Source: Patescibacteria group bacterium (lineage in GTDB: Bacteria; Patescibacteriota; Patescibacteriia; Patescibacteriales; UBA12465). Taken from it: a stretch of 46,317 nt of DNA. A program made the translations under genes and the position numbers. Position 1 is the first letter of the stretch. Each line of letters opens with the position of its first letter. The notes beneath the pieces were generated by a model. It saw nothing but the letters and a program-made list of their open reading frames with translations. It was not told the DNA's origin and made no database searches. The stretch is from NCBI GenBank assembly GCA_022710685.1, contig JAKLGM010000005.1:1-46317 (forward strand), given 5' to 3'. Positions 12,233 through 24,495 of this stretch are shown piece after piece.

Positions 12233-13264
12233 CTAATAATTAAGTTGGTAGTAGGTCGCTCGGCCGTGGCCGACTCTTTTGATTTCCCCCGCTTCTACTA
12301 ATCTTTTAAGGTCTAAACTCCTAGTGGCTCTCGCCCTGTCGGTAATCTTGGCATATTCTTTGTCGCTAATACTGCCATTTTCTTTTACATACCAGATAAT
12401 TTTATTCTGGTATTCAGAAATAGATTTTTTAGAAAGATTAGTTTCTAGTTCCAATTCTTTTTTTACCCTCAGCAACTCGTCGATGATTCCGTCGGTAAAA
12501 TATTCCAACCATTCGGTGAAGTCAATGTCATTTTGGAAGTCATAGTAATTTCCCATAACCCCGACTTGTTGGAAGTAACGGCCGACATTTTTGTTATAAT
12601 AATTTTCAAAGCTAAAGAGATTGAACGTATTTAACCCCATCTTGGCCAGTAGAGCTTTAGTACCAAGACGCGCTGTCCGACCGTTGCCATCAATGAAGGG
12701 ATGGATTATCACAAATTGCTTATGAAAGATCCCGGCTAATATTAATGGATCAATTTTGCCTTCGTTTTGTTTTATATATTTTAGCAACTCCGTTAGCATG
12801 TCTGGCACGTCGTCGTGGTTCGGCGGCAGGTAAATTGTTCGGCTGGTCCGAGGATCATTTACAAACACCGGTTCTTTCCTTATCCGGCCGCAACGGTATT
12901 TGTCTATTAGACTCTGGGTAATTGATTTTTGGATTTTTAATAGCAAAGATAAATCAAAGTCGTATTTTTTTTCTTTGATATACTCGTTCAATTCTGACAG
13001 CGCTTTATTGTAGTTCAATATTTCCTTCTCGCTGTCGCGGATATATTCCGGTTTGGTCTTTAATATCTGCCGGACTTCAGTCAGCGGCAGGGGATTACCT
13101 TCAATGCTGACCGAGGAATAGGTTGAAATTTCTCTAGCTTTCTTCTCAAATTCGGCTAAGACTACAAAAGAAAAGCGACGGCTATTTAATTCAGTCGTGA
13201 TTTCTGCCACCTTCTTTATGTTGGCTAATAGTTTATTGGAAATATTGTATTTTGGCGCAAACAT
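12233..13264 (-). CDS. Fic/DOC-family protein (AMPylase-type) with winged-helix C-terminus
   Basis: The protein has 343 residues. The Fic core motif HPFIDGNGRTAR is at residues 188-199 and matches the full HPFx(D/N)GNGRxxR consensus, so catalysis (usually AMP transfer to a hydroxyl side chain) should be possible. An upstream helix, SVSIEGN (residues 51-57, Glu55), fits the (S/T)xxxE(G/N) inhibitory motif of class II Fic proteins, which blocks ATP binding in cis. The last ~65 residues (NKIIWYVKENGSISDKEYAK...RSLDLKRLVEAG) read as a winged helix, so the protein may bind DNA, possibly at the repeats in its own promoter. No antitoxin-like partner gene is adjacent. Target unknown. Confidence 0.9.
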   Translation of the reverse strand: MFAPKYNISNKLLANIKKVAEITTELNSRRFSFVVLAEFEKKAREISTYSSVSIEGNPLPLTEVRQILKTKPEYIRDSEKEILNYNKALSELNEYIKEKKYDFDLSLLLKIQKSITQSLIDKYRCGRIRKEPVFVNDPRTSRTIYLPPNHDDVPDMLTELLKYIKQNEGKIDPLILAGIFHKQFVIIHPFIDGNGRTARLGTKALLAKMGLNTFNLFSFENYYNKNVGRYFQQVGVMGNYYDFQNDIDFTEWLEYFTDGIIDELLRVKKELELETNLSKKSISEYQNKIIWYVKENGSISDKEYAKITDRARATRSLDLKRLVEAGEIKRVGHGRATYYQLNY

Positions 13265-20080: not shown

Positions 20081-21046
20081 ATGAAGATATTGGTTACTGG
20101 CGGGGCCGGTTTTATCGGCTCCAATTTCATTATTTATTGGCTCAAGAATCATCCAGCCGACTCCATTATTAATCTAGATAAGCTGACCTACGCCGGCAAT
20201 CTGGATAATTTAGCCGAACTAGCCGGTGATAGCCGCTATAGTTTTGTCCAGGGCGATATTTGCGACTTTGCTTTAGTGAGTGGCTTGTTAAAGGATGTGG
20301 AACTGATTGTTCATTTTGCGGCAGAGAGCCACGTCGACAGATCTATCGCCAATAGTGCCGAATTCATCAAAACCAACGTGGAGGGAACTAGAACTTTGCT
20401 GGAGGCTGCTCGCCTAAATGGAAATATTCGTTTTCATCATATTTCTACCGACGAAGTTTTTGGCTCATTGAATCCGGGCGAGCCGAAATTTAATGAACAG
20501 ACCCCTTATGACCCCCACTCTCCTTACAGTGCTTCTAAAGCAGCCTCCGACCATTTAGTCCGCGCTTATTATCACACCCATAACCTGCCGATTACGATTT
20601 CTAACTGCTCTAATAATTACGGACCGCGACAGTTTCCGGAAAAGTTAATCCCGCTTTTCGTCACTAACCTGATAGAGGGCAAGAAAGTTCCGGTCTATGG
20701 TCAAGGGAAGAATGTCCGAGATTGGATTTATGTCGATGACCATAACCGCGGTGTTGATTTGATTATTCAGAAGGGTGAAATCGGCGAGACCTACTGCTTG
20801 GGCGGTAATAATGAGTTAACCAACATGGAGATTACCAAAGATATTTTGGTTCTGATGGGGCGGGGAGAGGAGATGATTGAGTACGTGGCTGACCGTCCGG
20901 GTCATGATTTCCGTTATGCTATTAATTTTTCTAAGGCTCAAAATGATTTAGGCTGGGAACCACAAGTAAATTTTTCCGCTGGGTTGAAATTAACTATTGA
21001 GTGGTATCAGGATAATCAGGAATGGTGGCAGAAGTTGAAAAAATAG
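20081..21046 (+). CDS. rfbB: dTDP-glucose 4,6-dehydratase
   Basis: The protein has 321 residues and an extended SDR fold. It has the NAD-binding GGAGFIGSNF at the N-terminus, STDEVFGSL, and the catalytic YSASKAASDH (YxxxK). The RDWIYVDDH and GETYCLGGNNELTN segments are typical of RmlB/RfbB. It dehydrates dTDP-glucose to dTDP-4-keto-6-deoxyglucose, the second step of dTDP-L-rhamnose synthesis. rfbD and rfbA follow, but separated by a terminator and a tRNA-like element, so they are probably not on the same transcript. Confidence 0.95.
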   Translation: MKILVTGGAGFIGSNFIIYWLKNHPADSIINLDKLTYAGNLDNLAELAGDSRYSFVQGDICDFALVSGLLKDVELIVHFAAESHVDRSIANSAEFIKTNVEGTRTLLEAARLNGNIRFHHISTDEVFGSLNPGEPKFNEQTPYDPHSPYSASKAASDHLVRAYYHTHNLPITISNCSNNYGPRQFPEKLIPLFVTNLIEGKKVPVYGQGKNVRDWIYVDDHNRGVDLIIQKGEIGETYCLGGNNELTNMEITKDILVLMGRGEEMIEYVADRPGHDFRYAINFSKAQNDLGWEPQVNFSAGLKLTIEWYQDNQEWWQKLKK

Positions 21047-21047
21047 C

Positions 21048-21074
21048 AAAAAACTCCCCAGAGGAGAGTTTTTT
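21048..21074 (+). terminator. Terminator after rfbB
   Basis: A stem AAAAAACTC / GAGTTTTTT plus two further G-C pairs after a mismatch, with a short A/G-rich loop, lies immediately after the rfbB stop codon. Confidence 0.75.
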
Positions 21075-21157
21075 GTATAAACTTTGCGGAAAAAATGTAA
21101 TTTTAATCTTGACCATAATATTTTAGCATTTTAAATATTAATGTCAATTTTTTCTAG

Positions 21158-21226
21158 TGGACCAGCGGGGAGTTGAACCCCGAAAGTTTAACTGTCAAGA
21201 TTAAATCCGCGACCGCCGCCTGGCCC
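21158..21226 (-). ncRNA. 69-nt tRNA-like element (acceptor and T arm intact, D arm degenerate)
   Basis: On the minus strand GGGCCAG (7 nt) pairs with CTGGTCC, followed by a discriminator A. A 5-bp T arm, CGGGG-TTCAACT-CCCCG, has a canonical T-loop. A middle stem TTTAA/TTAAA with a possible U-G closing pair leaves a 7-base loop CTTGACA, and the variable region is 4 nt. Only 14 nt separate the acceptor and middle stems and they form no normal D arm, so an ordinary tRNA is unlikely. It may be a tRNA pseudogene, a reduced tmRNA-like tRNA domain without tag frame, or an unusual tRNA. CCA is not encoded. Confidence 0.5.
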
Positions 21227-21297
21227 AGGCTAATATTCTAGCATTTAGGCCATCAAGCGACGGTAAAGAGGCGGTAAAATTTAATTAAAATAATTCT

Positions 21298-22149
21298 ATG
21301 GCAATACTTATTTTAGGAGCTCAAGGTAATTTAGGAGCGCAATTAGTTTCTGTTTTCGGGTCCGAGGCTATAGCCTGGGATCGGGAAGATTTGGATATTA
21401 CCGATAGGGATAAAGTTTTAGAAAAAATTTCTGGCTTGAAGCCAGAGGTTATCATAAATGCTACTGCCTATAACGCTGTTGATAAATGCGAATCTGATCC
21501 GGCTGAGCTTGATTTAGCCAAGAAGCTTAATGGTGCTGCGGTCGGTTATTTAGCCGAAGCGGCCTTGGTGACTGGGGCAATTTTGATCCATTATTCCACC
21601 GATTATGTCTTTAACGGCGAGGCTGATGGATACAGAGAAGAGGCTATCCCCAATCCAATTAATAATTATGGCCGGACTAAATTGTTGGGAGAGCAGGAGT
21701 TGAGTAAAAAAAGTGTACAAGGATTAAAATATTATTTAATCAGGACTTCAAAATTGTTCGGACCAAAAGGACCGGCGGCTGTTTCTAAGCCGAGCTTCTT
21801 TGATTTGATGCTTGGTTTGTCTAAAGACAGGGAAGAGCTTAAGGCAGTGGACGAAGAATTGAGTTGTTTCACTTACACTGCCGATCTGGCCTCGGCGACC
21901 AAGGATTTATTAGAAAAGGGATATCCCTACGGAATTTATCATATTGTTAACAGTCATCCGGCTACTTGGTATGAGGCGGTGTCTAGCTTGTTTGCCATTG
22001 CCGGGATTAATGTTAAACTGGTAGCGGTCAAGGGCGTTGATTTCCCCCGCCCGGCCCAGCGGCCGAAATGTTCGGTCCTTATTAATACTAAATTCCCGCC
22101 CTTAAGAGATTATCAGGTGGCTTTGCGGGAGTATTTAAAATTAAATTAA
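21298..22149 (+). CDS. rfbD: dTDP-4-dehydrorhamnose reductase
   Basis: The protein has 283 residues and a Rossmann-fold SDR. It has [17 protein letters not shown] (NAD(P)H binding), [27 protein letters not shown], and [12 protein letters not shown] (YxxxK), all RmlD landmarks. It reduces the 4-keto group in the last step to dTDP-L-rhamnose. rfbA follows after only 4 bases, so the two are co-transcribed. The preceding step needs RfbC (3,5-epimerase), which is not in the window and is not fused here. Confidence 0.92.
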
Positions 22150-22153
22150 AACT

Positions 22154-22879
22154 ATGAAAGGCATCATTCTCTCCGGCGGCAGCGCTACACGCCTGCGCCC
22201 CTGCACCAAGGTCACTTCCAAGCAACTATTGCCAGTCTATAATCGCCCCATGATTTATTACCCTTTAAATACCCTGATTAAGGCTGGGATCAAGGAGATT
22301 TTGATTATCGTGGCGCCGGAACGGGCCGGTGATTATCTAAATCTTTTGGGTAGCGGCAAAGAATTCGGCGTCAAGTTTACTTATGAAGTCCAGGACAAGC
22401 CGGAAGGTTTGGCCCAGGCTTTTATCATTGGTGAAAAATTCATTGATGAAGATTCGGTCTGCATGATTTTGGGTGATAATATTTTTGAAGACGATTTGGC
22501 TGACGATATTAAGAGCTTCAAGGGCGGGGCTAAGGTTTTTGCTCGCCCCGTGCCGGACCCGGAACGTTTCGGCGTAGTCGAGTTTGACGCTAATATGAAA
22601 GCCATATCCATCGAAGAAAAACCGGCTCAACCGAAATCTAATTATTGCGTTACCGGCATGTATGTCTATGATAATCGGGTGGTTGAGGTGGCTAAGAATC
22701 TGAAGCCATCGGCACGCGGGGAATTAGAGATAACTGATCTGAATCGTTGGTATCTAGAAAAAGGAGAGCTGGAAGTGGCGATGATCAAGGGGGCCTGGAT
22801 TGATGCCGGTACTTTTGATAGCTTGCTCGAAGCGCAGAATTTAGCAAAAGAGAGATTGCAAAGCAAGTTAATCATTTAA
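22154..22879 (+). CDS. rfbA: Glucose-1-phosphate thymidylyltransferase (short form)
   Basis: The protein has 241 residues with the nucleotidyltransferase signature [22 protein letters not shown]. It continues with [25 protein letters not shown] (metal site), [27 protein letters not shown] and [13 protein letters not shown]. It makes dTDP-glucose from glucose 1-phosphate and dTTP, feeding rfbB. It is about 50 residues shorter than E. coli RmlA and lacks the C-terminal helical extension, a form common in many bacteria and archaea. It ends at a terminator. Confidence 0.93.
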
Positions 22880-22893
22880 TCTTTTTAATAAAT

Positions 22894-22926
22894 AAACCCT
22901 TCTGTGACCAGAAGGGTTTTGTGTTT
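22894..22926. terminator. Terminator after rfbA, also facing the 36-residue peptide gene
   Basis: An 11-bp perfect stem (AAACCCTTCTG / CAGAAGGGTTT) has a 4-base loop, with T's after it on +. It can also end the convergent minus-strand micro-gene. Confidence 0.83.
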
Positions 22927-22952
22927 TATGGTAGGTTTTTCTTTTAGGGGGA

Positions 22953-23063
22953 TTAACTGACGAAAAGGGCAATCGTGGCGATAATTGACATAAAAATCAG
23001 CGCTTCAACAGTGCCGGTTTGGATTTGGGCCTTTTCAAGAGTCTTTTTGATTTTTGCTTTCAT
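22953..23063 (-). CDS. 36-residue single-helix membrane peptide
   Basis: The minus-strand frame runs from ATG (23063) to TAA (22953). The N-terminus is a short basic amphipathic segment (MKAKIKKTLEKAQ). It is followed by QTGTVEALIF and one hydrophobic helix MSIIATIALFVS that ends at the stop. The case for a real gene is a strong promoter (TTGACA-17-TATACT) exactly placed upstream, with a ~42-nt leader and a terminator downstream. The start lacks a Shine-Dalgarno, as do most genes here. Function is unknown; small membrane proteins of this shape often modulate a larger membrane complex, or can be toxic peptides. Confidence 0.6.
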   Translation of the reverse strand: MKAKIKKTLEKAQIQTGTVEALIFMSIIATIALFVS

Positions 23064-23112
23064 GAGGAACGGGTTTTTGGGGTTAAAAAATGTTTTAATT
23101 AATTGTGCAGGG

Positions 23113-23141
23113 AGTATACAACGTTTTTATTGTTTTGTCAA
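23113..23141 (-). promoter_or_regulatory. Near-consensus promoter for the 36-residue peptide
   Basis: On the minus strand TTGACA, 17 bases and TATACT; transcription would start near 23106, 42 bases before the ATG. Confidence 0.75.
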
Positions 23142-23156
23142 TATGTAGTATTTGGT

Positions 23157-23185
23157 TTGAAAAACGGGCCTAGATACTGTATAAT
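23157..23185 (+). promoter_or_regulatory. hisS: Promoter of hisS
   Basis: TTGAAA, 17 bases and TATAAT (preceded directly by TG) lie 26 bases upstream of the hisS ATG. Confidence 0.7.
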
Positions 23186-23211
23186 AATGGTATTATAACA
23201 ACTTATCATTT

Positions 23212-24495
23212 ATGGCTAAAAAAGTATTATCTAATCAGGCAGTTAAGGGTATGGCGGACTGGACTCCGGCGGAGTTTAAGATCCGGCAATATATTTTTTC
23301 AACTTGGCGCCGGGTTTGCGAGTCTTATGGTTTTGAGGAATATTTGACCCCCATTTTGGAGAACGCTGAAATTTATCGCGCTAAAAGCGGCGAGGATGTT
23401 GGCAACAAGGAGTTAATGGTGTTTGTGGACCAGGGCGGCCGGGAACTGGCTTTACGGCCGGAGATGACGCCTTCGGTTACCCGCTTGGTGGCGAAAAATT
23501 ATGATGCCGCCCCTAAGCCGCTGCGTTATTTTTCTATCGCTAACTTCGTGCGGAACGAACGTCCCCAGCGCGGCCGCAATCGTGAATTCTGGCAATTGAA
23601 TTGCGATATCTTTGGCAGCGATAGCTTAAATTCCGATATTGAGATTCTGACTTTGGCTTTAGATTTGGTGTTAGCATTTAATCCGCCTAAAGATTCTTTC
23701 GTGCTCTCTTTAAATAGCCGCCGCTTGCTGGACGGGTTATTGGAATTAATCGCAGTTGAGTCAGATGTCAAAATAAAGGTGGCGCGAATTTTGGATAAAT
23801 ATCTTAAGTTTAGCGCGAGCGATTTTTCCCGCAGCTTGGAAGATTTAGGTCTCAAGAGTGAAGCGGTCAAGACTATTATCAAATTCATGACCGCTATCAG
23901 TCTGGAAGATTTGAAGCAGCGTTTGCCCCAATTAGCTGATAATTCGGGGTTGAAAGAGTTGGAACAAACCATGTCTGTCTTAAAAAAATTGGGTTATCAA
24001 AAATATGTGAATTTTAATCCGAGTGTAATCCGGGGTTTTGATTATTATGACGGTGTTATCTTTGAGGTTTTTGACAAGCACCCGGAAAACAACCGGGCGA
24101 TGTTCGGTGGTGGTCGCTATAACGGTTTAGCTGAGCTTTTCGGGGCCAAAAGCTTCCCGGCAGTCGGCTTTGCTCCAGGCGATGAAACCACTAAACTCTT
24201 CTTGGAGGCTTGGGGTTTGCTCAAAAAGATTCCGGAGCCGCAAATAGATAAATATTATTTGCCTTTGCTCCAGACTGATTTAGCTGGCCCGGCCATGGCT
24301 TTAGCGCATCAGCTGAGATCGACTGGGGCCGTGGTAGAGATCGGGTTTGAACCGGTTAAGATTGGCAAGGCTTTAGAGCTGGCTAATAAGAAGGGAATCA
24401 GCCGAGTGATAATTTTAGGTGAGGATGAATTGAAACAGAAAGTTTATAAAATTAAAGACATGAAGACTGGCAAAGAAAAAAAGATTAAATTATAA
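23212..24495 (+). CDS. hisS: Histidyl-tRNA synthetase
   Basis: The protein has 427 residues and class II synthetase features. Motif 2 is YFSIANFVRNERPQRGRNREFWQLNCDIFG. The histidine-specific segments are GFDYYDGVIFEVFD (HisA-type) and motif 3 FGGGRYNGLAELFG...AVGFAPGDE. The C-terminal ~90 residues form the anticodon-binding domain (YYLPLLQTDLAGPAMALAHQLR...VIILGEDEL). It charges tRNA-His. It has its own promoter, and a GerMN-type gene follows 12 bases later. Confidence 0.96.
   Translation: MAKKVLSNQAVKGMADWTPAEFKIRQYIFSTWRRVCESYGFEEYLTPILENAEIYRAKSGEDVGNKELMVFVDQGGRELALRPEMTPSVTRLVAKNYDAAPKPLRYFSIANFVRNERPQRGRNREFWQLNCDIFGSDSLNSDIEILTLALDLVLAFNPPKDSFVLSLNSRRLLDGLLELIAVESDVKIKVARILDKYLKFSASDFSRSLEDLGLKSEAVKTIIKFMTAISLEDLKQRLPQLADNSGLKELEQTMSVLKKLGYQKYVNFNPSVIRGFDYYDGVIFEVFDKHPENNRAMFGGGRYNGLAELFGAKSFPAVGFAPGDETTKLFLEAWGLLKKIPEPQIDKYYLPLLQTDLAGPAMALAHQLRSTGAVVEIGFEPVKIGKALELANKKGISRVIILGEDELKQKVYKIKDMKTGKEKKIKL

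What the first reader, a model, noticed from the sequence alone, without database searches (positions are those of the whole stretch)
22953..23141. Unlisted 36-residue membrane peptide driven by a near-consensus promoter
The frame is too short for usual gene calling, but it has a TTGACA-17-TATACT promoter, a sensible leader, a basic amphipathic start plus a hydrophobic helix, and a terminator after it. Isolated single-helix peptides of this type include toxins and complex regulators.
Basis: partly seen in the sequence, partly recalled or inferred. Interest (0 to 1): 0.58.

Follow-up and report, generated by a model that had tools for sequence, protein, structure and literature searches.

The report
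Orphan 36-residue membrane peptide gene
In a small-genome bacterium, a short stretch found in no relative examined sits between two genes that are direct neighbours in its closest kin, and it appears to hold a complete tiny gene for a single-helix membrane peptide of unproven function.

Summary
An ATG frame for 36 residues (minus strand, 22953-23063) has a TTGACA-17-TATACT promoter and a two-sided terminator. An ORF of this length is unremarkable in such a stretch (40% of simulations). The combination with a hydrophobic helix, a basic N-terminus and that promoter occurred in 0 of 20,000. Codon usage is that of the window's genes and begins at the ATG. The transcript has no structure beyond the terminator. 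This favours a peptide gene over an RNA gene, but translation is not shown.

New here: the whole 332-bp rfbA-hisS gap is lineage-specific. In three relatives, one of the same genus, rfbA is followed by hisS after 9-26 bp. A second gap in the same cluster (rfbB-rfbD, 251 bp) is also new relative to the genus-mate.

Best reading: a recently gained orphan gene for an N-in, C-out single-pass peptide, more likely a helix-packing modulator of a larger membrane protein than a type I toxin. The function is inference. Modest interest.

The parts
22953..23063 (-). ORF of 36 aa, MKAKIKKTLEKAQIQTGTVEALIFMSIIATIALFVS, including stop codon: basic N-terminal half, hydrophobic helix from about residue 19 to 35
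23113..23141 (-). sigma-70-type promoter TTGACA-17-TATACT of the peptide gene
23064..23106 (-). predicted untranslated leader, unstructured, no Shine-Dalgarno-like motif (start inferred as 7 nt after the -10 box)
22894..22919 (.). two-sided intrinsic-terminator-like hairpin shared by the peptide transcript (-) and rfbA (+)
23157..23185 (+). divergent promoter TTGAAA-17-TATAAT, presumably of hisS
22880..23211 (.). 332-bp intergenic stretch absent in three relatives that keep rfbA directly followed by hisS
22871..22878 (+). 8-bp direct repeat ATCATTTA, left copy (second copy 23205-23212); possible insertion scar, weak
23205..23212 (+). 8-bp direct repeat ATCATTTA, right copy
22154..22879 (+). 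rfbA (NTP_transferase family; named glucose-1-phosphate thymidylyltransferase from its cluster), flanking gene
23212..24495 (+). hisS (histidyl-tRNA synthetase), flanking gene

Best explanation
A genuine, unannotated, lineage-specific protein gene. The 332-bp stretch arose between rfbA and hisS after this lineage split from its genus-mate. It brought a minus-strand transcription unit for a 36-residue peptide, a two-sided terminator and a separate hisS promoter. The peptide is inserted in the cytoplasmic membrane as one helix, basic N-terminus inside (inference from the positive-inside rule), and most likely acts by packing its helix, with acidic Glu20 at the membrane edge, against a larger membrane protein whose activity or stability it tunes. 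Shown by sequence: promoter, frame, codon signal, helix prediction, absence in relatives. Inferred: translation, topology, partner.
For: Promoter well above expectation and correctly placed. Coding log-odds 8.9 bits, equal to the median of 328 35-codon pieces of window genes, reached by 0 of 2,000 stop-free shuffles. The signal drops to -8.2 bits in frame upstream of the ATG, and the opposite-strand 57-aa ORF scores -5.4. AlphaFold gives one helix 3-35, mean pLDDT 82.7. No RNA structure apart from the terminator. rfbA-hisS gap of 10, 26 and 9 nt in G001, G016 and G009. Dcr peptides (26-51 aa, hydrophobic, predicted transmembrane, no homologues) picked from random libraries activate a sensor kinase through its transmembrane domain (PMC7790251, abstract and passages), so such a mode is feasible for an orphan peptide.
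Against: No homologue anywhere searched, so no codon-level selection can be shown. Five of the 81 short ATG ORFs in the window score higher on codon usage and overlap longer ORFs, so that measure is not specific. The codon-aligned antisense frame scores higher (11.0 bits), though it holds an in-frame stop. No expression data. Both neighbours are predicted soluble enzymes, so no partner is suggested by context.
Confidence: 0.5

Rival explanations
1. The frame is a chance ORF. The promoter drives a short non-coding or pervasive transcript that ends at the terminator, possibly limiting read-through between rfbA and hisS.
For: ORFs of at least 36 aa arise in 40% of such stretches. No homologue. 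Thymine-rich intergenic regions readily encode membrane segments in yeast (PMC7005711, abstract).
Against: No structure in the transcript beyond the terminator (z +0.3). Coding signal starts at the ATG. Strong helix plus basic N-terminus in 10 of 20,000 simulations, with promoter 0.
Confidence: 0.25
2. A type I-like membrane toxin, silenced by an antisense RNA or by low expression.
For: Under 60 residues, hydrophobic, one helix, like membrane-associated type I toxins (PMC8309996, passages).
Against: The only plus-strand promoter-like site overlapping the gene is 9 of 12, in a scan where shuffles give 3.8 such sites per 2 kb. The leader is open, not locked by structure. No charged residue after Glu20, whereas most such toxins carry positive C-terminal residues. 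No PADLOC match.
Confidence: 0.12
3. A relict: the N-terminal membrane segment of a once larger protein, for example a pilin-like protein.
For: The stretch VEALIFMSIIATIAL looks like pilin N-termini (recalled). One weak search hit was an ORF holding AGTSLIEALVAISIFAVL near its start.
Against: Gln, not Gly, would stand before the cleavage point when Glu is placed at +5 (motif recalled). No pilin family among Pfam matches up to E = 1. Own promoter and terminator.
Confidence: 0.08

Closest known systems
Small single-pass regulatory membrane proteins (recalled examples: CydX, KdpF, AcrZ, MgtS)
   Same: Length, one hydrophobic helix, likely N-in topology (recalled, inferred)
   Different: No sequence relation found in Pfam, NCBIfam, PHROGs or PDB sequences; not encoded next to a membrane-complex gene
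Membrane-associated type I toxins (Hok, Fst, AapA1, ZorO and others; PMC8309996, passages)
   Same: Short hydrophobic helix peptide
   Different: No convincing antisense antitoxin promoter, no structured leader, no positive C-terminal residues
Dcr peptides selected from random sequence (PMC7790251, abstract and passages)
   Same: 26-51 residues, hydrophobic, predicted transmembrane, no homologues
   Different: Artificial library peptides; this one is genomic, with its own promoter and gene-like codon usage

Membership tests
Membrane-associated type I toxin-antitoxin | Hydrophobic peptide under 60 residues with one helix | tested here: met
Membrane-associated type I toxin-antitoxin | Antisense or trans RNA antitoxin | tested here: inconclusive
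   only a 9-of-12 plus-strand site overlapping the gene, at chance level; a trans RNA cannot be excluded
Membrane-associated type I toxin-antitoxin | Structured 5' leader that holds back translation (recalled as common) | tested here: not met
   leader and first codons unfolded, -0.7 kcal/mol, z +1.0
Membrane-associated type I toxin-antitoxin | Toxicity on expression | not testable with these tools
   needs an expression experiment
Small regulatory membrane proteins | Single membrane helix, short | tested here: met
Small regulatory membrane proteins | Linked to or conserved with a membrane partner gene | tested here: not met
   neighbours rfbA and hisS encode predicted soluble enzymes; no conservation
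Type IV pilin-like proteins | Gly before cleavage and Glu at +5 (recalled motif), pilin N-terminal profile | tested here: not met
   Gln at the -1 place; no pilin profile at E up to 1
DUF2786 (PF10979) | Score over the gathering cut-off | tested here: not met
   14.6 bits against 23.9
Lineage-specific (orphan) small gene | No homologue and empty site in close relatives | tested here: met

The most novel reading that the evidence does not exclude
In this reduced-genome bacterium a compact rfbB-rfbD-rfbA-hisS cluster, still tight in the genus-mate, is being split by newly arisen intergenic units, one of which is a newborn or newly acquired gene for a functional membrane peptide complete with promoter, terminator and a replacement promoter for the gene it cut off.
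Probability: 0.25. Interest if true: 0.5.

Novelty: new member of a known kind. Interest (0 to 1): 0.3.

Why it matters
Peptides of this size fall below usual gene-calling limits, and orphan ones are also discarded by family catalogues: the FESNov catalogue required families from at least two species (PMC10849945, passage). [quoted passage not shown] If translated, this is a cleanly placed gene gain with the empty site known in three relatives.

Tried and rejected
Homologue search: the peptide alone in 98 relatives (2 of 98 at E up to 10, own genome and a 0.36 match inside a 591-residue frame), 379 phylum genomes (8 of 379 at E up to 1, own included), 380 class genomes (4 of 380 at E up to 0.5, own included), and as a one-sequence profile in 111 order genomes (22 of 111 at E up to 10, own included; best non-self 0.0037 over 18 residues inside a 596-residue frame). 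These sets overlap and E-values are per genome, so the non-self matches are at chance level. Of the non-self matches I looked at the ORFs around those in L039, L040, L045, L086, L087 and L088; these lay in larger or unrelated frames. The rest were judged from the tables only.

Degenerate pattern QTGTVEALI: 1 of 111 genomes, own; 2 stretches in genome contigs, short frames without a membrane helix; 2 in viral contigs, opposite to longer ORFs. Viral scan with the 57-residue open frame: 21 stretches matched a pattern, none confirmed.

DNA similarity of the 332-bp stretch in 39 family genomes: besides itself only short scraps of about 16-57 bases; the genus-mate scrap (L052) looks like a promoter of another gene region; the others were not read.

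Structured RNA: no Rfam family at the gathering score in the window; weak matches over the gap region are below cut-off.

Plus-strand 57-residue ORF: coding score -5.4, no relatives beyond weak matches in 3 of the 38 other family genomes at E 0.02-0.18; rejected. Pilin relict: see rivals. Insertion scar: the 8-bp repeat has chance 0.4-1.6% and no convincing inverted ends were seen, so no element type is claimed.

Literature: searches listed no papers; some searches listed papers of which four were opened (PMC7790251, PMC8309996, PMC7005711, PMC10849945), in outline, abstract or passages only. No paper on this peptide was seen in those searches.

Full report
Setting. The window is contig 32 of an 885,608-base genome in 36 contigs, 89% complete. 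Ribosomal protein L30 was not found there, while 13 of 14 control genomes have it. The finding lies between rfbA (22154-22879 plus) and hisS (23212-24495 plus), identified by Pfam families.

What is there. The minus strand carries TTGACA-17-TATACT (23141-23113), an ATG frame of 36 codons (23063-22953) and, 33 nt after the stop, an 11-bp hairpin (22919-22894) scored as terminator on both strands. On the plus strand, TTGAAA-17-TATAAT (23157-23185) points at hisS. Matches of at least 11 of 12 are expected 0.13 times in the window's intergenic DNA; 4 occur, two of them here. A perfect 12 of 12 site stands before the 12233-13264 minus gene, so consensus promoters appear to be in use in this genome.

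Is it coding? Length alone says nothing: 8,020 of 20,000 simulated stretches of the same composition have an ATG ORF this long. A helix as hydrophobic: 101. With a basic N-terminus too: 10. With the promoter too: 0 (criteria chosen after the fact). Codon log-odds against composition are 8.9 bits, at the 50th percentile of 328 gene pieces of the same length, and 0 of 2,000 stop-free shuffles reach it. The same frame upstream of the ATG scores -8.2; the plus-strand 57-residue ORF scores -5.4. Against: among 81 short ATG ORFs in the window five score higher per codon, all overlapping longer ORFs. Also the codon-aligned antisense frame scores 11.0, but my score skipped stops and that frame has an in-frame TGA (read). 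In gene pieces whose antisense is open, the sense strand scores higher in 295 of 317. There is no Shine-Dalgarno-like motif, as in 33 of 38 window genes; the leader and first codons are unfolded. The transcript without its terminator folds no better than shuffles (z +0.3), which speaks against a structured RNA gene.

The peptide. MKAKIKKTLEKAQIQTGTVEALIFMSIIATIALFVS: net charge +3, all lysines in the first 11 residues, peak Kyte-Doolittle 2.46 over 17 residues. AlphaFold2 without an alignment gives a single helix 3-35, mean pLDDT 82.7. An N-in, C-out membrane helix is inferred.

Relatives. No family at cut-off in Pfam or NCBIfam and none at E below 0.03 in Pfam, NCBIfam, PHROGs or PADLOC, and no PDB sequence better than E 6.9. 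Genome searches gave only chance-level matches. The family's hisS loci (30 held of 39 genomes with a match, own included) and rfbA loci (30 held of 38 genomes with a match, own included) show why: in G001 (same genus, hisS 76% and rfbA 89% identical), G016 and G009, rfbA is followed by hisS after 10, 26 and 9 nt, with no room for the peptide. In none of the other 26 relatives' rfbA loci does a hisS-length ORF start right after rfbA at such a distance with hisS known to be there; in genomes where both lie on one contig they are several kilobases or more apart (tables). The third genus member, G002, has no rfbA match and only a distant hisS-like match in its incomplete genome and cannot be used. 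The simplest history is a gain of 332 bp in this lineage rather than losses in the other branches. An 8-bp repeat ATCATTTA flanks the gain; such a match has a chance of 0.4-1.6%, suggestive only. The stretch ends the old co-directional arrangement with a terminator and gives hisS a promoter of its own, which is itself a plausible selected effect.

A second gain. The rfbB-rfbD gap is 251 bp here, but only about 10 bp in G001. It holds a tRNA-like element and another minus-strand promoter-like site. So this lineage has opened two gaps in one compact cluster.

Mechanism. With translation likely but unproven, the most probable action is intramembrane packing against a larger protein. Precedent for homologue-free peptides of this size: Dcr peptides that activate the sensor kinase PmrB through its transmembrane domain (PMC7790251, abstract and passages). 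Emerging yeast ORFs with adaptive effects also tend to encode membrane segments (PMC7005711, abstract). The toxin reading is weaker: an open leader, no good antisense promoter, no positive C-terminal residues. A chance ORF over a non-coding transcript remains a serious rival (0.25).

Verdict. Observation confirmed, coding reading likely, function open. A new orphan member of a known kind (tiny membrane peptides); the clean empty site in relatives is the most useful addition.

Noticed in passing
21159-21226 minus, in the rfbB-rfbD gap (21047-21297): tRNA-like element: Rfam mascRNA-menRNA match at E 3.5e-4 below its cut-off. Default ARAGORN finds nothing; at relaxed settings it calls tRNA-Leu(taa). 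Its T-arm motif was not found in the other 29 rfbA loci held. Possibly a degenerate or unusual tRNA.
   Followed up: partly
21047-21297: This rfbB-rfbD gap is 251 bp here but about 10 bp in the genus-mate G001: a second lineage-specific gain in the same cluster.
   Followed up: partly
21120-21147 minus: Promoter-like TTGACA-16-TAAAAT (11 of 12) just past the tRNA-like element, pointing at a hairpin after rfbB; no sensible product seen.
   Followed up: no
20081-22879: No rmlC was identified among the dTDP-rhamnose genes here; the genome's only PF00908 match is on contig 3.
   Followed up: partly
whole window: Only 5 of 38 genes of at least 450 bp have a Shine-Dalgarno-like motif; starts follow AT-rich leaders.
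   Followed up: partly
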